Source: Pezizomycotina sp. ARF18 (Eukaryota; Ascomycota). Taken from it: a DNA stretch of 64,000 nt. Where the stretch lies: assembly GCA_002224055.1 (NCBI GenBank), contig AZLU01000021.1, positions 248,001 to 312,000 of the forward strand, in the 5' to 3' direction. Below, one piece after another: positions 25,330 to 59,050 of this stretch (within the stretch, counting starts at the first letter, position 1; each line of letters starts with the position of its first letter). The notes under the pieces were generated by a model that was given only the letters and a program-made list of their open reading frames with translations, was not told the DNA's origin and made no database searches. The position numbers and the translations under genes were made by a program.

Positions 25330-26757
25330 CTAATAACCCTTAGGTTTCTCAGTCCACCAATGAACCTTTACCTTGGCGTTCCGTTCAACTTGGCGGATGA
25401 TGTTCCAATCAATTTTGTCTTGTTTGAGTCCAATCACGATAACATCAAACGATGACTCGAGTTCGGCGCTTGTAATGTGGTTGTCGCACTTGAGGACGTC
25501 GGGTACAGCGTCTGGCCTAACAAGAGGATCCATCCACTCCACGTAAGCACCTAGCGACTTGCACTTGCGAGCGAGAGCTAGTCCTGGTGAATTACTCAAG
25601 ACACTCTGTCCAGCCTTAAACCCAGCACCAACGACGAGCACTCTAGGTGGCGTACCCGTTTCCTCAATGTGCTTCTTGACAATCTCGACACCGAGAGCGG
25701 AAGGTCTCCGTTTGGACATCTCGGTGGCCTTCTCCAACAGTGGAAAGTCTAGGTTATGCATCAGGAAAAATGGGTTCTCGGGGATGCAGTGACCGCCTAC
25801 ACCCAAGGATGGAGAGTAAGGGGTATAGCCATAAGGTTTTGTAGCTGCAGCCGCAGCAACCTCGTAGGGATCGATTCCGATGGAAGCGGCGGCATCGGCC
25901 ATCTCGTTTGTAAACGCGATGTTGATCATGCGCTGACAATTTTCGTACAGCTTCGTCATCTCGGCAACTTCCGGTTTCGAAACCTTGACTAACGTCTCGA
26001 ATATACGTGAGTAGAGCGCTTCGATCTCGGATAGCGCCGAGCGGGTTAAACCGCTGATGAGCTTGGGAACTGATTCGAGAGCTGGAAATGTGCGACCAGG
26101 ATCGACGCGCTCCGGAGACATTCCGCCGAGAATGCTGCGTTCGCGAACGAGGGGCATGAGGAGTTCTCTTGTCATCCCTACGGCGACCGATGATTCGATG
26201 ACAATGACGGTACCGCGACGGGCGCAGCGGCGAACAGTTTCGAGTGCTGAATTGAGATACGATTTATCGACGCTGCCAGCGCGAGCTATTGTGGGAACAG
26301 AAATCAGGAAATGTGTCGCAGCCCGGAGGTCGGACGAGTCGGAGTAACATGGAGTCTTGGAACGTGCGCGAGGTGTGTTTGAGATACTCTACCCGCTTAG
26401 GGTAGACATCGAAGGCTATTACCGGGTATACGGCCCCAAAGGCTTCGACGAGGTGCTCTCCGACATAGCCGACGCCAATGATGGCAACGATTGGTCTGGT
26501 GCGAAGGTCGTCAGCGGAAAGAGGCTCGGTTGCTGCGCTCTCGTCTATTGAGAAGTCAAAGAATTCCCGCTGAAGCTCGTCGTCATCGGAATCCATATCA
26601 ACATCCGAAAGGAGATACGAGCCCTCAGAAGACGGAGGTGTCAGTGGAGGGAGATAGGCGCCTCCATGGGCGGAAACTTTGACTTCGAGTCGAGCACTGC
26701 AGACTTCTTAGAGGGCTGCTCGGGGGTGGTAGGTTGGATTTGAAGTCGGCTCCGCAT
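25330..26757 (-). CDS. Nucleotide-sugar (UDP-glucose/UDP-ManNAc type) dehydrogenase
   Basis: The ATG at 26757 starts a disordered leader (MRSRLQIQPTTPEQPSKK, then PPLTPPSSEGSYLLSDVDMD). The NAD-binding Rossmann motif is IVAIIGVGYVGEHLVEAFGA, followed by HFLISVPTIARA, VIVIESSVAVGMTRELLMPL and SPERVDPGR. The central domain has EVAEMTKLYENCQRMINIAF-TNE with the conserved Lys and Asn. The active-site Cys lies in GVGGHCIPENPFF (about 25785). The C-terminal UDP-binding domain has RVLVVGAGFKAGQSVLSNSP and YVEWMDPLV. These enzymes oxidise a UDP-sugar twice to the uronic acid using NAD+. Length is about 470 residues, normal. Two frame jumps (near 26665 and 26340) split it. The exact sugar is undecided: the SPERVDPG and GGHCIP forms fit both the UDP-glucose and UDP-N-acetylmannosamine branches. 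Confidence 0.92.
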
Positions 26758-36479: not shown

Positions 36480-36947
36480 GGTCTTAGGCATTTGAGGAGT
36501 GCAATAACAAATTGTGTCCATGACAATGTTAGTCCATTTAGGTTCTTGTGGGAGTCGATTATTCTTCACCCTAATTTGTGTGGAATAGTTTCCAAGCCAG
36601 CATGTCCTACAGCTAATAATATGATTGAAGATATTGATTGTTCTATTATTAAAGCTTCTTTGGTAAAACTAAATATCTTGGGGGGGGGGGGGGGGGGTTA
36701 TAATCTAACGTCACAGGGAAAGTAGCGGGAAGGGGAAGGAAAAGGGGAAGGGTAACTAGTAATACATGTATCTAGGGATGAAGACTACTAAAAGTACGAG
36801 ATAGTGAAGCATAGACCCTGTCGCAAGGTGGGCTTAAATCTCTATACTCCCATCTTTAATGCTTAGCGACACCACCGATGTTGAAGGGTTTAAGGAACTG
36901 AGAAATGTTAAAGTTGGGATCGTTGCTAGAGATGGAAGAAGCACAGT
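36480..36947. other. Short intergenic region with poly-G run
   Basis: 3' flanks of two convergent genes. An 18-base G-run at 36680-36697 is the notable feature. Confidence 0.7.
36680..36697 (+). repeat. G18 homopolymer
   Basis: 18 consecutive G. Such a run may form a quadruplex and its true length is uncertain in most sequencing chemistries. Confidence 0.9.
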
Positions 36948-38541
36948 TCAATCCCGAAGCATCGCAGCCCCCAGAAACCTGGGTGCCGGGTTCGATGGAC
37001 CAACGCTGGTGTTCGCAGTGACACCGGAGGAAGCTGCCTGGTTTGCGGTCTGATCGGAGGCTGGGTTGGAGTTCTGGCGAGCGGTTTGTTCGATAGATTG
37101 GCTACCGGTATTGGAAGCCTCAGTGTCTGTGGACCCACTTTCTTGCCCGTTTACGCAGCCGTTTTCCGGATGGCATTTGGTAGGAGGGCAACTGGCTGGC
37201 CGAAGATATTTAAAGCTGGCTGTTCGCTAGCAGGTTGTTGATCGGCGGTGGCCCTGGCGGGTGTGCTAGCGCTATTGCTAGCAGCTTGCTGAGGCTCCTG
37301 AGCCTGAACAGGTTGAGCCTGCTGAGCCTGCTGAGCCTGAACAGGCAGTGCACCAGGGAAATTGCCACCGAGAGCCTGGCTTATTGCTGCCCCAACGTCA
37401 AAGTTCGGATCGTTGCTGGAAGTGGCGGAGGCGAAATTTCCCTGGCCGTCGCTTTGTGAGACAGTCTGCGTACCAGTAGTGTCAGGACCGACGTTGGCGG
37501 ACGCTGCGACATCCCTCTTGAAGTTGAGTGGGATTCCCAAAGCTTGGATTTGATCCCTAATGTCTTGAGGGAGGTCGAAGCGGGGCGCAGGGTGCCGTCT
37601 GTGCTGGAGAAAGACGAAGAGCAACTGTTTTCATCGCATTGGGAGTCGCTCTCGTGGCCGGGGGTAGGCCCCGTAGAGCTCGAAAAGGATGAGACATCTC
37701 GCTTGAAGCCGGGGACATGTTCGTTATGAAGTTGCTGCCTTACCGAAGTCGGAATATTGGCGGTAGGGATGTTGAAGTTCGGAATATTGATCTTCGGGAT
37801 GTTGACCGGTGCGCCGCCACCACGCTACTGCTGGAGAAAGATGAAGCGGAATTTCCCTTGCCGTCACGCTGGGAGTTGCTGACGGTTCTGCCGTTGCTGA
37901 AGCTTGTGGAGGAGACAGCCCTCTTGTTCAAGTTAACACCCTGAATTTTGGTAATACCCAGCGCTCTGAGCGTATCCTTTACGTTTTCAGGGAGCTCCAC
38001 GGCGGAATATTGATGTTCGGGATGGTAGGCTGCGGGATATTCGGCCGAGGGTATTCTTCCGAGAGGTATTCTTCTGAGAAGCCTGAGCAGGAGCGCCACC
38101 GCCACTGCTGCTAGAGAAAGATGAAGCGAAGTTCCCATTGGCGTCACGCTGCGAGTTGCTTACAGTACCACCGTTGCTAAAGCTAGTGGAAGATACGGCC
38201 CTCTTGTTCAAGTTTACACCCTGGATATTGGTGATACCCAGCGCTCTCAGTGTATTCTTGACACTCTGCGGGAGGTCCACTGGAGGAATATTAATGTTCG
38301 GGATGCTGGGTCGAGGGTTATTCTTCTGAGAGGCCCTAGCAGGAGCACTACTGCCGCTGCTGCTAGCGAACGAAGAAGCTAAATTCCCATTGCCGTCGCG
38401 CTGGCTGTTGCTGACAGTTCCTCCGTTGATAACACTGGAAGATGAAACGTGCCTCTTCTCCAAAGCGTCTTGAGGAACAGGAACAGCAATGGCGACGCCG
38501 GCAATGAGTGCGACGGTAGCAACAGTAGAAGCACCCTTCAT
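36948..38541 (-). CDS. Secreted five-module repeat precursor with Kex2-type KR sites
   Basis: ATG 38541 gives a signal peptide (MKGASTVATVALIAGVAIAV-PVP). Five Lys-Arg sites follow in register, at about 38452, 38200, 37920, 37699 and 37514 (EKR, NKR, NKR, FKR, FKR), about 62-93 residues apart. The modules begin [H/A/D]V-x-S and share GGTVSNSQRDGNGN-x-ASSF, a Pro/Asn/Ile stretch (IPNINIPPVDLP), then VKNTLRALGIT-x-IQGVNLNKR. Copies 1-3 are nearly identical, 4 and 5 diverged (VSQSDGQGNFASA). The last is followed by a Gln/Ala-rich tail (QQAQQAQPVQAQEPQQAA) and a Cys-containing end (CPPTKCHPENGC), stop near 36948. The pattern fits fungal kexin-processed repeat proteins, whose modules are cut in the Golgi and exported as peptides. 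No modification enzyme gene (such as the UstY/DUF3328 type) is seen nearby. Frame jumps lie near 38050, 37860, 37600 and 37195. Confidence 0.8.
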
Positions 38542-47730: not shown

Positions 47731-48323
47731 TTAATCTTCGTCGGCATCGGCGTCGCTTGGCTTTTGGTGCATTCTACCGCCCACCGTCACCTTGGTCGAC
47801 CTCTTCCGGATGATATCGCTGCTCACAGTCGTTCCGGAACCGCTTGAACTGGAACTGCTCGAAGTGGAACCGCCCCCTCTGTGCTTTCTCGGTCCCTGCG
47901 GATGATATCGATGCGGAAGTTTCCTCCGGAACTGCTGCTGGTGCCGCCACTGGTTGAAGTCGAACTGGTCGAAGTCGAGCTGCTAGTCCTGTATTTTCTG
48001 GGGTCTCTGCGGATTATGTCGATACGAAAATCTCCGCCGGAGCTGCTGCTGCTGGAACTAGTTGAACCGGTGGAAGTCGAACTTTTCGAAGTGGAGCCGC
48101 TTGTATTGTGCCTTCTAGGTTCCGGCGGATGATATCTTCTTAGGATCCCGGCGGATGATATCAGCGAGATCCTCGCCGCGCGGGTTAAGAGCGGGAGCAG
48201 CGGCCGCGAGGCTATCGAGAGAAATATTATGAGCATCCATATGGCACTATCTAGCAACGGCTATAGTATACGGAAGACTACTTACGTGAGGAGGGAAGAA
48301 ATGATGACAAGTGACAGCTTCAT
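47731..48323 (-). CDS. Secreted DIIRR-repeat precursor protein
   Basis: Exon 1 (48323-48286) and an intron of 74 nt (48285-48212, GTAAGT to GATAG) join in frame to give a clean signal peptide, MKLSLVIISSLLTLAAAAPA. Five DIIR[R/K] motifs follow, at about 48148-48163, 48120-48136, 48006-48022, 47892-47910 and 47803-47818: DIIRRDPKK, DIIRRNPRRHNTSG, RIDIIRRDPRKYRTSSS, RIDIIRRDPRKHRGGG and SSDIIRKRST. The linkers are almost pure Ser/Thr/Gly (STSTSSTSTSGGTSSSSGG). The RR/KR steps are potential Kex2 cleavage sites and would release peptides of about 35-45 residues ending DII. The end is acidic (DADADED), stop at 47731. Three homopolymers appear one base short; with them the repeat stays in register throughout (about 170 residues). 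The family is not recognised. Confidence 0.75.
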
Positions 48324-50162
48324 ATTTGGAGGTGTTTGGTAGACGATGTGAGTACCGGACTCTGGCGTCTTAAGCTCTAAACGACGGAACGGGATGGATA
48401 AAATGGTTCGAAAGAAGACAGGACAATTGAGGACTCTGCTCAACCGCTTGCGGTAAACGAACGTGGAGAATGGAAGTGACTCTGAGGCTTTTGATCCCGA
48501 ATGAGCACGAACAACGATAACCATGGACAACGTTCAAGGGTCCTTTTTATATACCCTTCTGATCTTTATTCTTTTGTCCAACATTGGACGATCCGAATGG
48601 GGTAACTTTCCTGCGATATTTCTTGTTAAATTGCAACCGCGTTTGAGCAGCAAGCCACACGGCGGAGAGTCTATCAGTATACAGGAACATATTAAATTCG
48701 CTCTCCAGAATCTCCAGGAAACGCCAAAGGGACCCCACCACACGAAATTCCTGCGAAAATATACGGCATGTTATTTAGCCTCATATAAAAAAAAGATCTC
48801 GGGTGGGAAGCGTTTCGCTTCAAGTTAACTGCTTCGCATAGGCAATATCCCGAGAGAGCTGGTTTTGGAATTGCGGGGCGGGCGTTTGCGTTTATTATTA
48901 TTACCAAGACCTACATGCAGATATTTGGATTCATTTACTGTATCGTCGGTTTGCCGGGAAATTCGTTACGTTTTTTTTTTTTTTTTTCTTACGTAAAACG
49001 TGCGCATTCGTTTCGTTCAGATTGGGGATCTCGAGGCTTCTAAACAAGGAGACCCGATCATTTTCCCTTGGTTCGTACGCTAGAAGTTCAGAGGTAACCT
49101 TGGGCTCGGAGCATCAGTTAATATAAATTAATATAAGTTGATATCAATTATACCGTCTTGAGGGTCGCGATCGGCCTCTGTAGACGGAAGCCAGAACGAT
49201 GAGAACTCGGGAAAAATTCGTCGTTTGGATTTTCTCCTCTCAACCCCCCGAAGGAGTGTAGCGGATAATCATAGCGGATAATTATGAACACCAACAAAAA
49301 GGGGTCCTCCTTTTTGTACTGTATTTCGTAACGCCTCCAACGTCAAGGGCTTCAGGAAGCGAACCACTCGCCAACATTCCATGAAAAGGAGACCTGCAGG
49401 GACGGACATTACGGTGGAGTAAAGGGGCTTTCTTGGCCGTGTTTCTATTCAAAATTTTTTTTCGAGATCTTCAAATTTTGTTCTACACCCGTGTACTTAA
49501 ATGGGAAGGCAATCCGGTCTTTATTGCAATGCTGAGCATCGTTGCTCGCAAGGTTCGTCTATGTTTCTCTCTGTGTAATTTTTCCTACGAAATACCCGAC
49601 GCTGATCAGGATCTTCAGGGCTTTTCTCAAGCGATTCGCGTTGATTAAGAGACCCACTTTCAGTGTATCGAGATTTGCAAGACGAGACTGGGGAGACCCC
49701 ACTCGTTGACTGAATATCGCAGGTCAGTGTCGATGATGGCTAAATTGTCTCATCATATAACTGCTGGTAAATTCGCGAAACCTGGAGAACGATATAAATA
49801 GATTGATTGAAATGAAAATTTAATTTTGACTGCTAATCAGCTTTTAGAAAGCCGAAGACATCAATATAGTTAATTAGAAGTCTAATCTAAGGATTTGGTT
49901 AAGGTCATAAAGCGTTAACTGAAGAGTGTGAAGTTTTCTCGTCATGATGATAATCGCAAACATGCTAAAATGAGTGTCTAGTAGATATCCTTTTGTTCCA
50001 CCACAGCCAGAAATGCAAATGGGAGCTATTGTGCCAATACAGAACATGAATGGAGAAGATGAATTAAGATAGTTTCGCCGTAACTTCTGACCTTACTGCG
50101 AGTGCTCGGAGGTAGTATGTATATTAAAAATTACTTAGTTGTCAAGTGCCGACAACTCGAAA
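48324..50162. other. Intergenic, no gene recognised
   Basis: Promoter of the DIIRR gene and 3' flank of the His/Gly/Pro-rich gene. A T-run lies at about 48970-48987. No domain was recognised in short frames. Confidence 0.45.
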
Positions 50163-51108
50163 TCAGAACGGAGACCCCAGAGATGTTTTAGTAGCTAACG
50201 TAACATTGTTCTGGTAAGGCGGCGGGCTAGTCTTGTAAGGACCGGCACCACCGTGGTACTGGCCAAAGTTTGTGCTCGTGCCACCGTGTTGGGACTTCTC
50301 GTGCTGCTTGTTCCTGTAATGGCCGGACTGGCCGTTGTGTCCATACTTCTTGTCATCATCGCAGTCCTCTTCCTGGTTGTGCTTGTAGTTATGCGGAGCG
50401 GGCTGGTGCTTAGGCTTCTGGTACTTCGATTGCTCCGGGTGTCTGTAGCCGGCGTACCGTACGATTCACTGCGGCGGTGGTTATTTCCGTAGTGGACTTC
50501 CGTAGGCTTCTGCTGGGGCTTCTGGTGCTCGTACTGCTTATGCTCTTCGTGGTAGTGGTTCACCGGCTTCTTGTGCTTCTCTTCGTGGTACTCAGGGCCA
50601 CCATGTCTATACTTGCTGTCATCGTCGCAGTCCTCATCCCCTTGTTGTGATAGTTATGCGGAGGGGCGGGCCTGTGGTTCGGCTTCTGATCCTGGTAATG
50701 CTGGTTGTTGTTGTTCTCGTAAGTGTAGCTGCGGCGGTAATACATCGTCGGGCCGTTGCTGTGGCTGCTAGACTGGCCCTGGTGGGGGTTTCCTCCGTGG
50801 TAAGGACCGAAGTTGTGAGGCTGCTGGCCGTGGTTGTACTGGTTACCATAATTACCGTGAGGACGCCTGTTCTTGTCTTTCTCGTCGTCGCAGTCTTCGT
50901 CCTTGCCGTGGCCGTTAGGGCCCCTGTGAGGTGGCTGTGGGTGATGTACAGGGCTCCCGCCATGGTAGTTACTGCCGTGCGGCGGCTGCGGATGGACAAT
51001 GACGCCACCGTTAGCGCCGTTTTGGCCGTAGCCGGGAGCTTGGCCGTAGGTCGGGGCCGCGGAAGCGGCGGCGATGAGAGCGGAGAGAGCGATGATCGAG
51101 GCCTTCAT
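50163..51108 (-). CDS. Secreted His/Gly/Pro/Asn-rich repeat protein with CDD boxes
   Basis: ATG 51108 gives a signal peptide (MKASIIALSALIAAASA-APTYGQ). The mature part is low complexity: PGYGQNGANGG, HPQPPHGSNYHGG, HNFGPYHGGNPHQGQSS, and YENNNNQHYQDQKPNHRP. An acidic box with a single Cys recurs three times, roughly every 270 bases: KDEDCDDEKDKN (about 50900), GDEDCDDxSKYRHGG (about 50625) and QEEDCDDDKKYGHNGQ (about 50365), each preceded by a PHNYxxN-type stretch in the last two copies. The protein ends FGQYHGGAGPYKTSPPPYQN and stops at 50163. His-rich/acidic composition suggests metal or wall interaction, but that is inference. Frame jumps near 50630 and 50450. There is no Kex2 ladder. Confidence 0.75.
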
Positions 51109-52877
51109 TTTGAAAATTATTGAAGTCTTGGAAGTGAACGTAAATTTTGAAGTGCCGCTGTTAAGAGTGTCTTCGAGACTTTTCAAAGAAAGGAATGCGT
51201 TAAGGAAAAGAACGTAAAGAGCCGTGAAGGAGCTGGATATCTATCTAGAACGAATGTAGATGTTCGTGATGATGATGATGATGGAGAAGAGAAGCTCTGG
51301 GAGGTGGACTCACGGTCTCTTTATAACAATTTTACGCCAGGCTTCAAGAAGATGACACCCTTGAGACGTTCCTTCATCATCACTCTAGCTTTAGCTTATC
51401 CGAGTTCCCGTTGTTCTATGACGACCGCATGAGTCTGGGCGGTTTTCCGAGAACCGGATTGGCATGCCATAGGCTTACGCTTGTAACATCCGGATCGACA
51501 ACGCTCGGTGGTTCCTATCACGCTCTTGTTCCCGTTTCCGTATTAGTTTCTGTCGATACAAATCTTTCTTAAGTCAGAAAGATCAAGGTTCAGCCCTACG
51601 ATAGATAGCTTGTTCTCTCAAATGTCCTTTGCATAGTTTCTGTTTTCTGCACGAGTGTCTAATTGCAGAGTGCTGAAACATGCATGAAATGCCGTTGTCC
51701 CGAATCACCGCCGGTAAACGATAAGCCCCTCAACAGCATGGTGTACGCGTCAGCTGTCAGCAGAGATCATGTAGGGGAATTCGGTTAACCGTGTCATGAA
51801 ACAGCATCCAGCGTTTTTTTTTTTTTTTTTCCTCCATGAACCGAAACGAGCTGCCACGAGCCGAAATCCGACCAAGTTGAGAGCAGGAATGACACGAGAG
51901 TCGTGATATCACAAAAATTAGACCATACCCATACATAAACCGACAGCTAGAGCACAAGCAATAATTTTGAAGATTCAGCTGTGATTGGGGAGGATGCCAA
52001 TACGCGATAGCTACCCTTGCAAAAGTGTTGGCGGATGTTTCGTAAAACACGTGCAGAATTAAGTTATGCTAAAGAAACTGATACGAGAACCCCATGTCCT
52101 CTTTTGCGTCAGCGGCGAACGTTTGCTGCGGCACTTGGATGGGTTGCCCGCGCGATACTTACACCATCCAATAGTTTCTTTCGTGACCCTACAAAGACTC
52201 ACGATCCTCCGGTTCGGCTGATATCCTGAGTCATCGTTACGGACCTGAATAAATCAGTAGTTTGCATAGCTTGGTATAAAACAGACAGCGAGATACCATT
52301 AGATACTAATTTCTTTCATTAGGCCTCAGAAGGGCAAGGTCAATCTTGTATTTTATTGAATACCATCACCGCCACAGACCGATGTGACTCGTCTATATAT
52401 GCGTGTCAAAGGCCACAGGCTTCCTACTAACACTACGCGCCTTTACAGTTATCGATAGACATCAAGCTACAGGCGAGTACTTTAAAGCATATAGCTACAT
52501 GTATCGCGCCGCTATCAACGCCTGAGGAGGAGGCTCAAAAATCTCCATACATTTTCCATTGGGTTTGCTTCGCGGAGAATTCGCTGAATTTTAACCCGCA
52601 AGGTTGAGTCAGCCTCTGACGAGCAACCTTACAAAAAGTCTTATCAGTTTCCCACCGTCCCACGGATGCCATCGTCATCATACAACCAACATCTCAGAGA
52701 ACTTATAATCCAGTTTCAACTATTTTTGGGCTCCTCGAGAGCCGGTAATCATCACAAACTTTCGGAAGGTAAATTATAAAGCAGCTCGGGAGTCTGTATC
52801 GTACTTACGGAAAGAGATAGCTTGCTGACCGTTGACAGTAACAGTTAACAGCCAAGAGATCCGAAACAATTCGCGCC
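51109..52877. other. Intergenic, no gene recognised
   Basis: 1.8 kb divergent promoter region. A T-run lies at about 51814-51830, with a GAT triplet stretch near 51265-51285. No gene was recognised. Confidence 0.45.
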
Positions 52878-57852: not shown

Positions 57853-59050
57853 ATGGCAGACAAGCTCGCCGCCGATGTCGAGGGGCTAAAGATCTCCGGC
57901 GAAGGTGTCAAGGCCTTCAAGCTCGGTGACTTCAAACTGCAATCTGGCAGGTCCTCGAGAACGCACACATCGCTTACAAGACCTACGGCGACTTTTCGAA
58001 GCCTGCAATCGTCTATCCGACCTGGTTCTCTGGCTGTAAGTTCCCTTTCGAGATATTCTCTCGCGTTATTCGCTTATGTTAACCCTACTACTCTTACCTA
58101 TCCTCCTATAGTGATATCCGACAACGAATGGCTCATCGGTGACGACAAAGCGCTGAACCGGCCGACTTACTACATCATCGTCCCCGCAATGTTCGGAAAC
58201 GGCCAGTCCACCGCCCCCTCGAACTCCTCCAGCGTCCTTTTCCCTCAATTTACCCTCTACGACGACGTTAAGGCGCAATACCTGCTCGTCACGGAACACC
58301 TGGGCGTCAAGCACCTTCGCATGGTTCTCGGCTGGTCTATGGGCGCGCAGCAGACGTACCAATGGTCCGTACAGTACCCCGATATGATGGACCTCATTGT
58401 CCCTTTGCGGATCCGCGAAGACGAGCGTCCACAACTATGTTTCCTCGAGGGCGTGAAGAGTGCGCTGGTCTCTCCGATCAACGCCGGCGCAGACCCAAAG
58501 GATAAAAAGACGTGGGAGGCCGGATTGAAAGCCTTCGGTAGGGTTTATGCGGGTTGGGGCTTCAGCCAGGATTGGTGGAGGCAGAAGGAGTATTTGAAGC
58601 TGGGCTATAAAGACCTCGAGGATCACTTTGTCAACTTTTGGGAGAAGTGGGCTTTGAGTAAAGGTTCGTCGATTTATAAGACCAAGCCTGATGTTTTACG
58701 CGGCTAGGCAATGCTGACTTTCGGCTCGGATTCATGTACCAGACCCCGAAAATCTTCTCTGCATGCTGGACACTTGGCAGAATGGTGACTGCTCGAAGCA
58801 AGAGCCGTTCAACGGCGATTTCAAAGCAGCTATGGCGTCAATAAAAGCTAAAGCTCTGGTCCTTCCGGGAAAGACAGACTTGTACTTTCCGCCTGAGGAT
58901 TCCATGCTCGAATTCGAGGCCATGACGACGCATGCGTCCGTCGAACCGTTTCCGAGCAACTGGGGACACTGGGCTGGCGGACCAGGGACGAATCCTGTGG
59001 ATGTCAAATGGCTCGATGCTAAATTGAAGGATTTCCTGGCAAAACAATAA
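57853..59050 (+). CDS. Homoserine O-acetyltransferase-like alpha/beta hydrolase
   Basis: Exons 57853-58035, 58112-58663 and 58743-59050, with introns GTAAGT to TATAG and GTTCGT (GCTGAC branch) to CCAG; both joins are in frame (GD-x-NEWLIG; SK-DPENLLCMLDTWQNGD). Start MADKLAADVEGLKISGEG. Family landmarks: FKLGDFKLQSG, AYKTYGDFSKPAIVYPTWFS, YYIIVPAMFGNGQSTAPSNS, nucleophile Ser in VLGWSMGAQQTYQWSVQYP, GFSQDWWRQKEYLKLGYKDL, acid Asp in LVLPGKTDLYFPPEDS, catalytic His in PFPSNWGHWAGGPG. This is the full triad of the homoserine acetyltransferase (MET2/MetX-like) superfamily. The acyl acceptor is not certain, since many fungal members act elsewhere than in Met synthesis. Three homopolymers one base short (near 57947, 58404 and 58440) cause the frame jumps; the gene is otherwise complete at about 370 residues. 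Confidence 0.92.

What the first reader, a model, noticed from the sequence alone, without database searches (positions are those of the whole stretch)
47731..48323. DIIRR-repeat secreted precursor with Ser/Thr linkers
A tight signal peptide is followed by five DIIR[R/K] motifs separated by almost pure Ser/Thr/Gly. The motif is far better conserved than the linkers, and the RR/KR step is a potential Kex2 site, so DII may be a processed C-terminal end or a RIDII peptide core. I know no described family with this motif.
Basis: partly seen in the sequence, partly recalled or inferred. Interest (0 to 1): 0.75.

Follow-up and report, generated by a model that had tools for sequence, protein, structure and literature searches.

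The report
Secreted fungal repeat peptide precursor
A small fungal gene seems to encode a secreted protein in which one charged motif recurs five times between serine- and threonine-rich spacers; it looks like one more orphan of the common class of fungal proteins that are cut into peptides on their way out of the cell.

Summary
Removing a 74-nt GTAAGT...AG intron gives a signal-peptide-like start running into motif 1. The frame then slips by one missing base after motifs 1, 2 and 4. HSP70 and TCP-1 genes of this genome break alike (28 frame changes in 17.4 kb), so faulty assembly is likelier than decay, although this locus has more breaks than expected (P 0.02). Between motifs 3 and 4, which share a frame, 8 of 10 differences are at third codon positions, suggesting selection on protein; five other comparisons are not significant. 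The conserved block is DIIRR-x-P-[RK]-[RK]. A kexin and a Ste13-like peptidase are encoded; no UstYa match is on this contig. No paralogue was found; relatives could be sought only in viral and prokaryote collections. Best reading: an orphan Kex2-processed repeat protein, a known, diverse class. Against it, conservation surrounds the cut sites while the would-be core is low-complexity; an uncut Ser/Thr-rich secreted protein remains a serious rival.

The parts
48286..48323 (-). Exon 1, reads MKLSLVIISSLLT (start of signal-peptide-like segment)
48212..48285 (-). Putative 74-nt intron, donor GTAAGT, acceptor TTTCTCTCGATAG; its removal joins exon 1 in frame to LAAAAPALNPRGEDLADIIRRDPKK
47731..48211 (-). 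Exon 2, read in pieces in three frames; last piece ends in an acidic tail and TAA at 47731-47733
48148..48162 (-). Motif 1 DIIRR, followed in frame by DPKK; frame change before motif 2
48122..48136 (-). Motif 2 DIIRR; frame change directly after it
48006..48020 (-). Motif 3 FRIDIIRR, followed in frame by DPRKYR
47895..47909 (-). Motif 4 FRIDIIRR, in the same frame as motif 3; frame change directly after it
47803..47817 (-). Motif 5 DIIRK (DIIRKR), last copy before the tail
48033..48110 (-). Ser/Thr/Gly linker between motifs 2 and 3 (88% S+T+G)
47922..47993 (-). Ser/Thr/Gly linker between motifs 3 and 4 (92% S+T+G)
48546..48553 (-). TATA-like box (TATAWAAA) about 230 nt upstream of the ATG; 4 such boxes on the minus strand of the window, 11 on the plus

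Best explanation
A fungal gene for a secreted repeat precursor. Shown from sequence: five copies of DII[RK][RK], the first four within a longer block DIIRR-x-P-[RK]-[RK], spaced 26, 116, 111 and 92 nt; the last three gaps are filled by Ser/Thr/Gly linkers; the whole stands behind a signal-peptide-like start split by a putative intron. Inferred: the protein enters the secretory pathway, kexin cuts after the RR of each DIIRR, a Kex1-type carboxypeptidase trims the basic residues, and a Ste13-type peptidase may remove the Asp/Asn-Pro dipeptide. This would release linear, probably O-mannosylated peptides of about 30-39 residues with a basic front, a Ser/Thr/Gly middle and a DII end (FRIDII in two copies). 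The frame breaks are read as single-base losses in the assembly.
For: Motif number beyond chance. Signal-peptide-like start and an intron with consensus ends. In the copy pair readable in one frame, differences by codon position are 1, 1, 8 (binomial P 0.0034): selection on protein. Kexin with S8 and P domains. Ste13-like DPPIV with a hydrophobic, membrane-anchor-like segment upstream (read by eye). RR followed by Asp-Pro in frame in copies 1 and 3, and x-P readable just after copies 2 and 4, matching the XP dipeptide after Kex2 sites described in passages of PMC9769878 and section 9 of PMC6339444. HSP70 and TCP-1 genes carry the same kind of frame change (28 in 17,397 bp, 22 of 28 in the direction seen here).
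Against: The conserved part is around the cut sites; the would-be peptide is low-complexity, the reverse of described precursors with repeated cores. Of six block comparisons one shows a clear third-position excess; the other five have P 0.06-0.58. This locus has more frame breaks than the genome rate predicts (3 against 0.58 expected in 360 nt, P 0.02), all within a few nucleotides after a motif. Breaks are uneven: a UDP-glucose dehydrogenase-like gene in this window is matched over about 930 nt in one frame, and the Ste13-like gene has a 525-residue open stretch. No orthologue, transcript or peptide was available. No signal-peptide predictor was run.
Confidence: 0.5

Rival explanations
1. 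A secreted Ser/Thr-rich, O-glycosylated protein that is not cut: the conserved charged block DIIRR-x-PR[RK] is itself the working part, for example a repeated surface- or polymer-binding patch, with the linkers as glycosylated spacers.
For: Conservation sits in the charged block, not between the dibasic sites. Two linkers are 88% and 92% S+T+G. Dibasic residues occur twice per block (DIIRR and PR[RK]), as in a basic patch.
Against: Dibasic steps in a secreted protein are usual kexin substrates (recalled), and a kexin is encoded. No known binding domain: Pfam gave none at the locus and the PDB one match at E 0.34, taken as chance.
Confidence: 0.3
2. A decayed copy: the gene was once as described but has lost its frame.
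For: Three frame breaks in about 360 nt, more than the genome rate predicts (P 0.02). No intact paralogue was found. Some genes are unbroken over 0.9-1.6 kb.
Against: Housekeeping chaperone genes, other parts of the Ste13-like gene (by eye) and two neighbouring secreted genes (by eye) break frame in the same way. No second copy was found that would make this one redundant.
Confidence: 0.15
3. Programmed -1 frameshifting after the DIIRR units, so that one mRNA is read through all five motifs.
For: The three breaks lie just after motifs 1, 2 and 4 and all have the same sense.
Against: The same kind of break is spread over unrelated housekeeping genes. Motif 3 has none.
Confidence: 0.02
4. A modified cyclic peptide precursor (dikaritin type: ustiloxin, phomopsin and kin).
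For: Signal-peptide-like start, repeats and dibasic sites.
Against: The 4 UstYa matches found lie on contigs C87 and C96, none on the window's contig C21 (the tool calls its counts lower bounds). No modifying enzyme in six-frame Pfam scans of 40-60 kb.
Confidence: 0.03

Closest known systems
Kex2-processed repeat proteins (KEPs; Le Marquer 2019, Umemura 2020)
   Same: Signal-peptide-like start, several repeat units of 8-100 residues spaced by dibasic sites; orphan sequences are usual in the class (2560 of 7878 had no homologue, PMC7329392 section 6 part 1).
   Different: Conservation lies around the dibasic steps rather than in a core; the segment between sites is Ser/Thr/Gly-rich; no continuous frame in this assembly.
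Ascomycete alpha-pheromone precursors
   Same: Dibasic site followed by an X-Pro dipeptide, as for Kex2 then Ste13.
   Different: One X-Pro per unit in four of five copies; three of the four spacings are about 31-39 residues and Ser/Thr-rich; no pheromone-like core seen (by eye).
Rep1 repellent of Ustilago maydis
   Same: A KEP whose peptides need no or at most one step after Kex2/Kex1 cutting (passage in PMC9769878).
   Different: No sequence comparison was made; nothing here shows amyloid-like or surface-active peptides.
Dikaritin precursors (ustiloxin type)
   Same: Secreted repeat precursor with dibasic sites.
   Different: No UstYa match on the contig.

Membership tests
KEP (Umemura 2020 criteria) | Signal peptide for the ER | tested here: inconclusive
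   A typical-looking start appears after splicing, judged by eye; SignalP not available.
KEP (Umemura 2020 criteria) | At least 3 tandem repeats of at least 8 residues between KR, KK, RK or RR, none over 100 residues | tested here: inconclusive
   DIIRR-to-DIIRR spacings 26, 116, 111, 92 nt, about 9, 39, 37 and 31 residues; met only if pieces from three frames belong to one protein. The authors' repeat score was not computed.
KEP (Le Marquer 2019 criteria) | Cutting at KR/RR gives at least 4 fragments, at least 3 of them similar | tested here: inconclusive
   Five RR/KR steps in the motifs would give at least six fragments; their FIMO similarity test was not run and the frame is broken.
KEP (functional) | Cut by Kex2 to peptides | not testable with these tools
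   A kexin gene is present; no peptide data.
Dikaritin / ustiloxin-type RiPP | UstYa (DUF3328) genes near the precursor | tested here: not met
   4 matches in the genome, 3 on C87 and 1 on C96, none on C21.
Alpha-pheromone precursor | XA/XP dipeptides after the Kex2 site | tested here: inconclusive
   One XP per unit: Asp-Pro in frame in copies 1 and 3; in copies 2 and 4 the frame changes there and Pro is read in the following frame; copy 5 lacks it.
Alpha-pheromone precursor | Short conserved pheromone core repeated | tested here: not met
   The two linkers measured are 88% and 92% Ser+Thr+Gly, with no short repeated core between them; no pheromone profile was run.

The most novel reading that the evidence does not exclude
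A so far undescribed type of linear secreted fungal peptide: pheromone-style processing (kexin, carboxypeptidase, Ste13) releases Ser/Thr/Gly-rich glycopeptides in which only the two ends, a basic front and a DII (FRIDII) tail, are held by selection, so that the ends and not a core carry the message.
Probability: 0.22. Interest if true: 0.5.

Novelty: new member of a known kind. Interest (0 to 1): 0.3.

Why it matters
Secreted repeat precursors are widespread in fungi, and most of their peptides have no known function. This adds one with an unusual layout, conserved ends around a variable Ser/Thr/Gly middle. It also shows that such genes can be hidden in error-rich assemblies, where a gene finder would see only fragments.

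Tried and rejected
Searches that found nothing: relatives by the search for related loci in viral contigs and genome contigs (600 and 594 stretches matched a pattern, none confirmed). These hold viruses and prokaryotes, so their silence says little about fungi. Paralogues in the own genome were sought with three single-frame pieces and two DNA patterns (23 matches, 4 here, reversed-pattern control 10; 22 matches, 4 here, control 9). The one weak match outside the locus (C26, E 0.05, 42% over 36 residues) lies, read by eye, in a Ser/Thr- and Lys/Arg-rich stretch without a DIIRR motif in the part viewed, and was taken as chance. L026, an exact match to the pattern on C3, showed no repeat in the part viewed. 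The PDB gave one match, at E 0.34. Pfam gave no family at the locus.

A paper search for the motif letters gave 1,794 papers, of which 30 were listed; those were unrelated words, spider family names above all. Letters of the second repeat gene gave 3 unrelated papers.

Homopolymer explanation of the breaks: 1 of 10 break windows in HSP70 genes holds a run of 4 or more, against 7.5% of random windows, so no support. The 10 were chosen from the breaks as narrow and lying in loci already held.

First frame-change count (13 in 4,788 bp) used 22 of the 38 HSP70 rows, counted one largely overlapping pair as a break and counted overlapping bases twice. It is replaced, which used all 38 HSP70 and 33 TCP-1 rows. 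In that count 4 of 28 changes span gaps of 28-31 nt and are less certain than the abutting ones.

Within the window, homoserine acetyltransferase-like pieces lie in two frames, but the gap between them could be an intron, so this was not counted. A third frame gave nothing.

Structure prediction was not run: single-sequence prediction of a low-complexity piece would say little. The organism was not identified.

Full report
Where it is. The window is contig C21:248001-312000 of a 46.36-Mb, 408-contig assembly. Apparent introns, a kexin and UstYa genes point to a fungus (inference); the species is not known. The feature is on the minus strand, 48323 down to 47731.

The observation. Five DII[RK][RK] motifs start at 48162, 48136, 48020, 47909 and 47817. 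A first-order Markov model of the window gives 0.2 such motifs per 64-kb strand, and in 60 simulated strands never more than one per 593 nt. The window holds no other on either strand. In the whole genome, the pattern GAYATHATHCGSMRG has 23 matches, 4 of them here; the other 19 lie on 19 different contigs (reversed-pattern control 10). A longer pattern, with one mismatch allowed, has 22 matches, 4 of them here (control 9). DNA repeats of 53-73 nt at 60-81% identity underlie the units.

Frames. The motifs are not in one frame. Motifs 1 and 5 share one, motif 2 has a second, motifs 3 and 4 a third. Start-to-start distances are 26, 116, 111 and 92 nt, so three of the four steps are one base short of a whole number of codons.

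The start. Exon 1 reads MKLSLVIISSLLT and runs into a TAA that lies within a GTAAGT donor. Of 13 GT-AG models printed (introns of 40-200 nt, at least 35 residues), a 74-nt intron (48285-48212), ending in TTTCTCTCGATAG, leads in frame to MKLSLVIISSLLTLAAAAPALNPRGEDLADIIRRDPKK. Eleven others hold motifs 3 and 4 but not motif 1, and one holds motif 1 behind a GTCATC donor without this start. The chosen start has a lysine, a hydrophobic core and an Ala-rich end. I judge it a signal peptide by eye; no predictor was run. A TATA-like box lies about 230 nt upstream of the ATG; such boxes occur 15 times in the window on both strands, so this is mild support.

Are the breaks real? Genome-wide HSP70 and TCP-1 matches (38 and 33 rows) come in pieces that adjoin or overlap on the DNA and continue in the profile but change frame: 28 changes in 17,397 bp, 22 of them in the direction seen here. 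The Ste13-like gene on C24 and the two secreted genes next door also change frame by eye. Several essential genes are unlikely all to be dead, so I infer that the assembly loses single bases. Results that go against a simple version: the locus has 3 breaks in about 360 nt where 0.58 are expected (P 0.02), all within a few nucleotides after a motif; break sites in HSP70 show no excess of homopolymers (1 of 10 against 7.5%); a UDP-glucose dehydrogenase-like gene in this window is matched over about 930 nt in one frame; and the Ste13-like gene has a 525-residue open stretch. Decay is therefore kept as a rival at 0.15.

Selection on the protein. In the best block pair (48002-48054 with 47891-47943), both in one frame, differences fall 1, 1, 8 on codon positions 1, 2, 3 (P 0.0034), giving SSSSSGGDFRIDIIRRD and TSSSSGGNFRIDIIRRD. 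The other five block comparisons are not significant on their own (P 0.06 to 0.58). The block that follows the motif reads xPRRHN, xPRKYR and xPRKHR in units 2, 3 and 4. The conserved unit is thus DIIRR-x-P-[RK]-[RK], with two basic pairs; two linkers are 88% and 92% Ser+Thr+Gly.

Machinery and context. The genome holds one match to the proprotein-convertase P domain (C56; four stops inside, whether intron or error), with subtilase S8 pieces just upstream: a kexin. It has a DPPIV-N protein (C24) preceded by a hydrophobic segment that looks like a membrane anchor, read by eye, as expected of Ste13. UstYa has 4 matches, none on C21. Six-frame Pfam scans of 40-60 kb at E up to 0.01 gave an AAA ATPase piece near 43.5 kb (with weaker RNA-helicase and NACHT matches on the same stretch), ankyrin below cut-off near 40.5 kb, and an abhydrolase just below cut-off near 58.2 kb, in the homoserine acetyltransferase-like gene. 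No peptide-modifying enzyme was among them.

How it most likely works. Inferred: signal-peptide removal, kexin cutting after each DIIRR, carboxypeptidase trimming, perhaps Ste13 removal of the X-Pro pair, release of Ser/Thr-rich, probably O-mannosylated peptides of about 30-39 residues. That Kex2 prefers Arg at the cut and accepts acidic residues after it is recalled, not from a call. X-Pro or X-Ala pairs after Kex2 sites, with X often Asp or Glu, are stated in a passage of PMC9769878 and treated in section 9 of PMC6339444. The main weakness is that in described precursors the core between the sites is what repeats, while here the sites and their flanks are conserved and the middle is not. The uncut binding-patch reading (0.3) follows from the same fact.

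Known kinds. KEPs are defined in the methods of PMC7329392 (section 13) and PMC6339444 (section 24; sections 9 and 10 also seen). In the former, 7878 were found in 1345 of 1461 strains (abstract), and 2560 had no homologue (section 6 part 1). The formal criteria could only be tested on pieces. PMC12048977 was seen as abstract and outline, and PMC2515848 as passages. The lists of motifs in the papers' supplements were not available, so I cannot say that DIIRR is absent from them. The motif letters were not seen in a relevant paper among the 30 listed of 1,794.

Verdict. A real, probably living, secreted repeat-protein gene with a conserved dibasic block, most likely obscured by a faulty assembly. 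It is most simply an orphan member of the KEP class; function unproved.

Noticed in passing
window 36850-38541, minus strand: A second secreted repeat gene about 9 kb away: signal-peptide-like start and five KR steps (EKR, NKR, NKR, FKR, FKR); the first three units are alike, of the type KR-[AH]VSSxSxxNGxTVSNSQRDxxGNxASSFxSSS. It too is spread over three frames. A clearer candidate Kex2-processed repeat protein than the one reported (read by eye).
   Followed up: partly
window 50195-51186, minus strand: A third secreted gene, His/Pro/Gly/Asn-rich with a signal-peptide-like start (MKASIIALSALIAAASAAP), continuing over three frames (read by eye).
   Followed up: partly
whole assembly G000; HSP70 on C49, C70, C303, C208, C3; TCP-1 on C20, C24, C53, C54, C99: Conserved genes change frame about 1.6 times per kb, mostly one base short (22 of 28), so gene prediction on this assembly will be fragmentary.
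   Followed up: yes
G000 C87:88916-94127 and C96:141603-141797: UstYa-family matches, three of them close together on C87: a possible cyclic-peptide cluster elsewhere in this genome.
   Followed up: no
window 57853-59050, plus strand: Homoserine O-acetyltransferase-like gene, matched in two frames.
   Followed up: partly
window about 25400-26330, minus strand: UDP-glucose/GDP-mannose dehydrogenase-like gene matched over three domains in one frame, the C-terminal one below cut-off.
   Followed up: no
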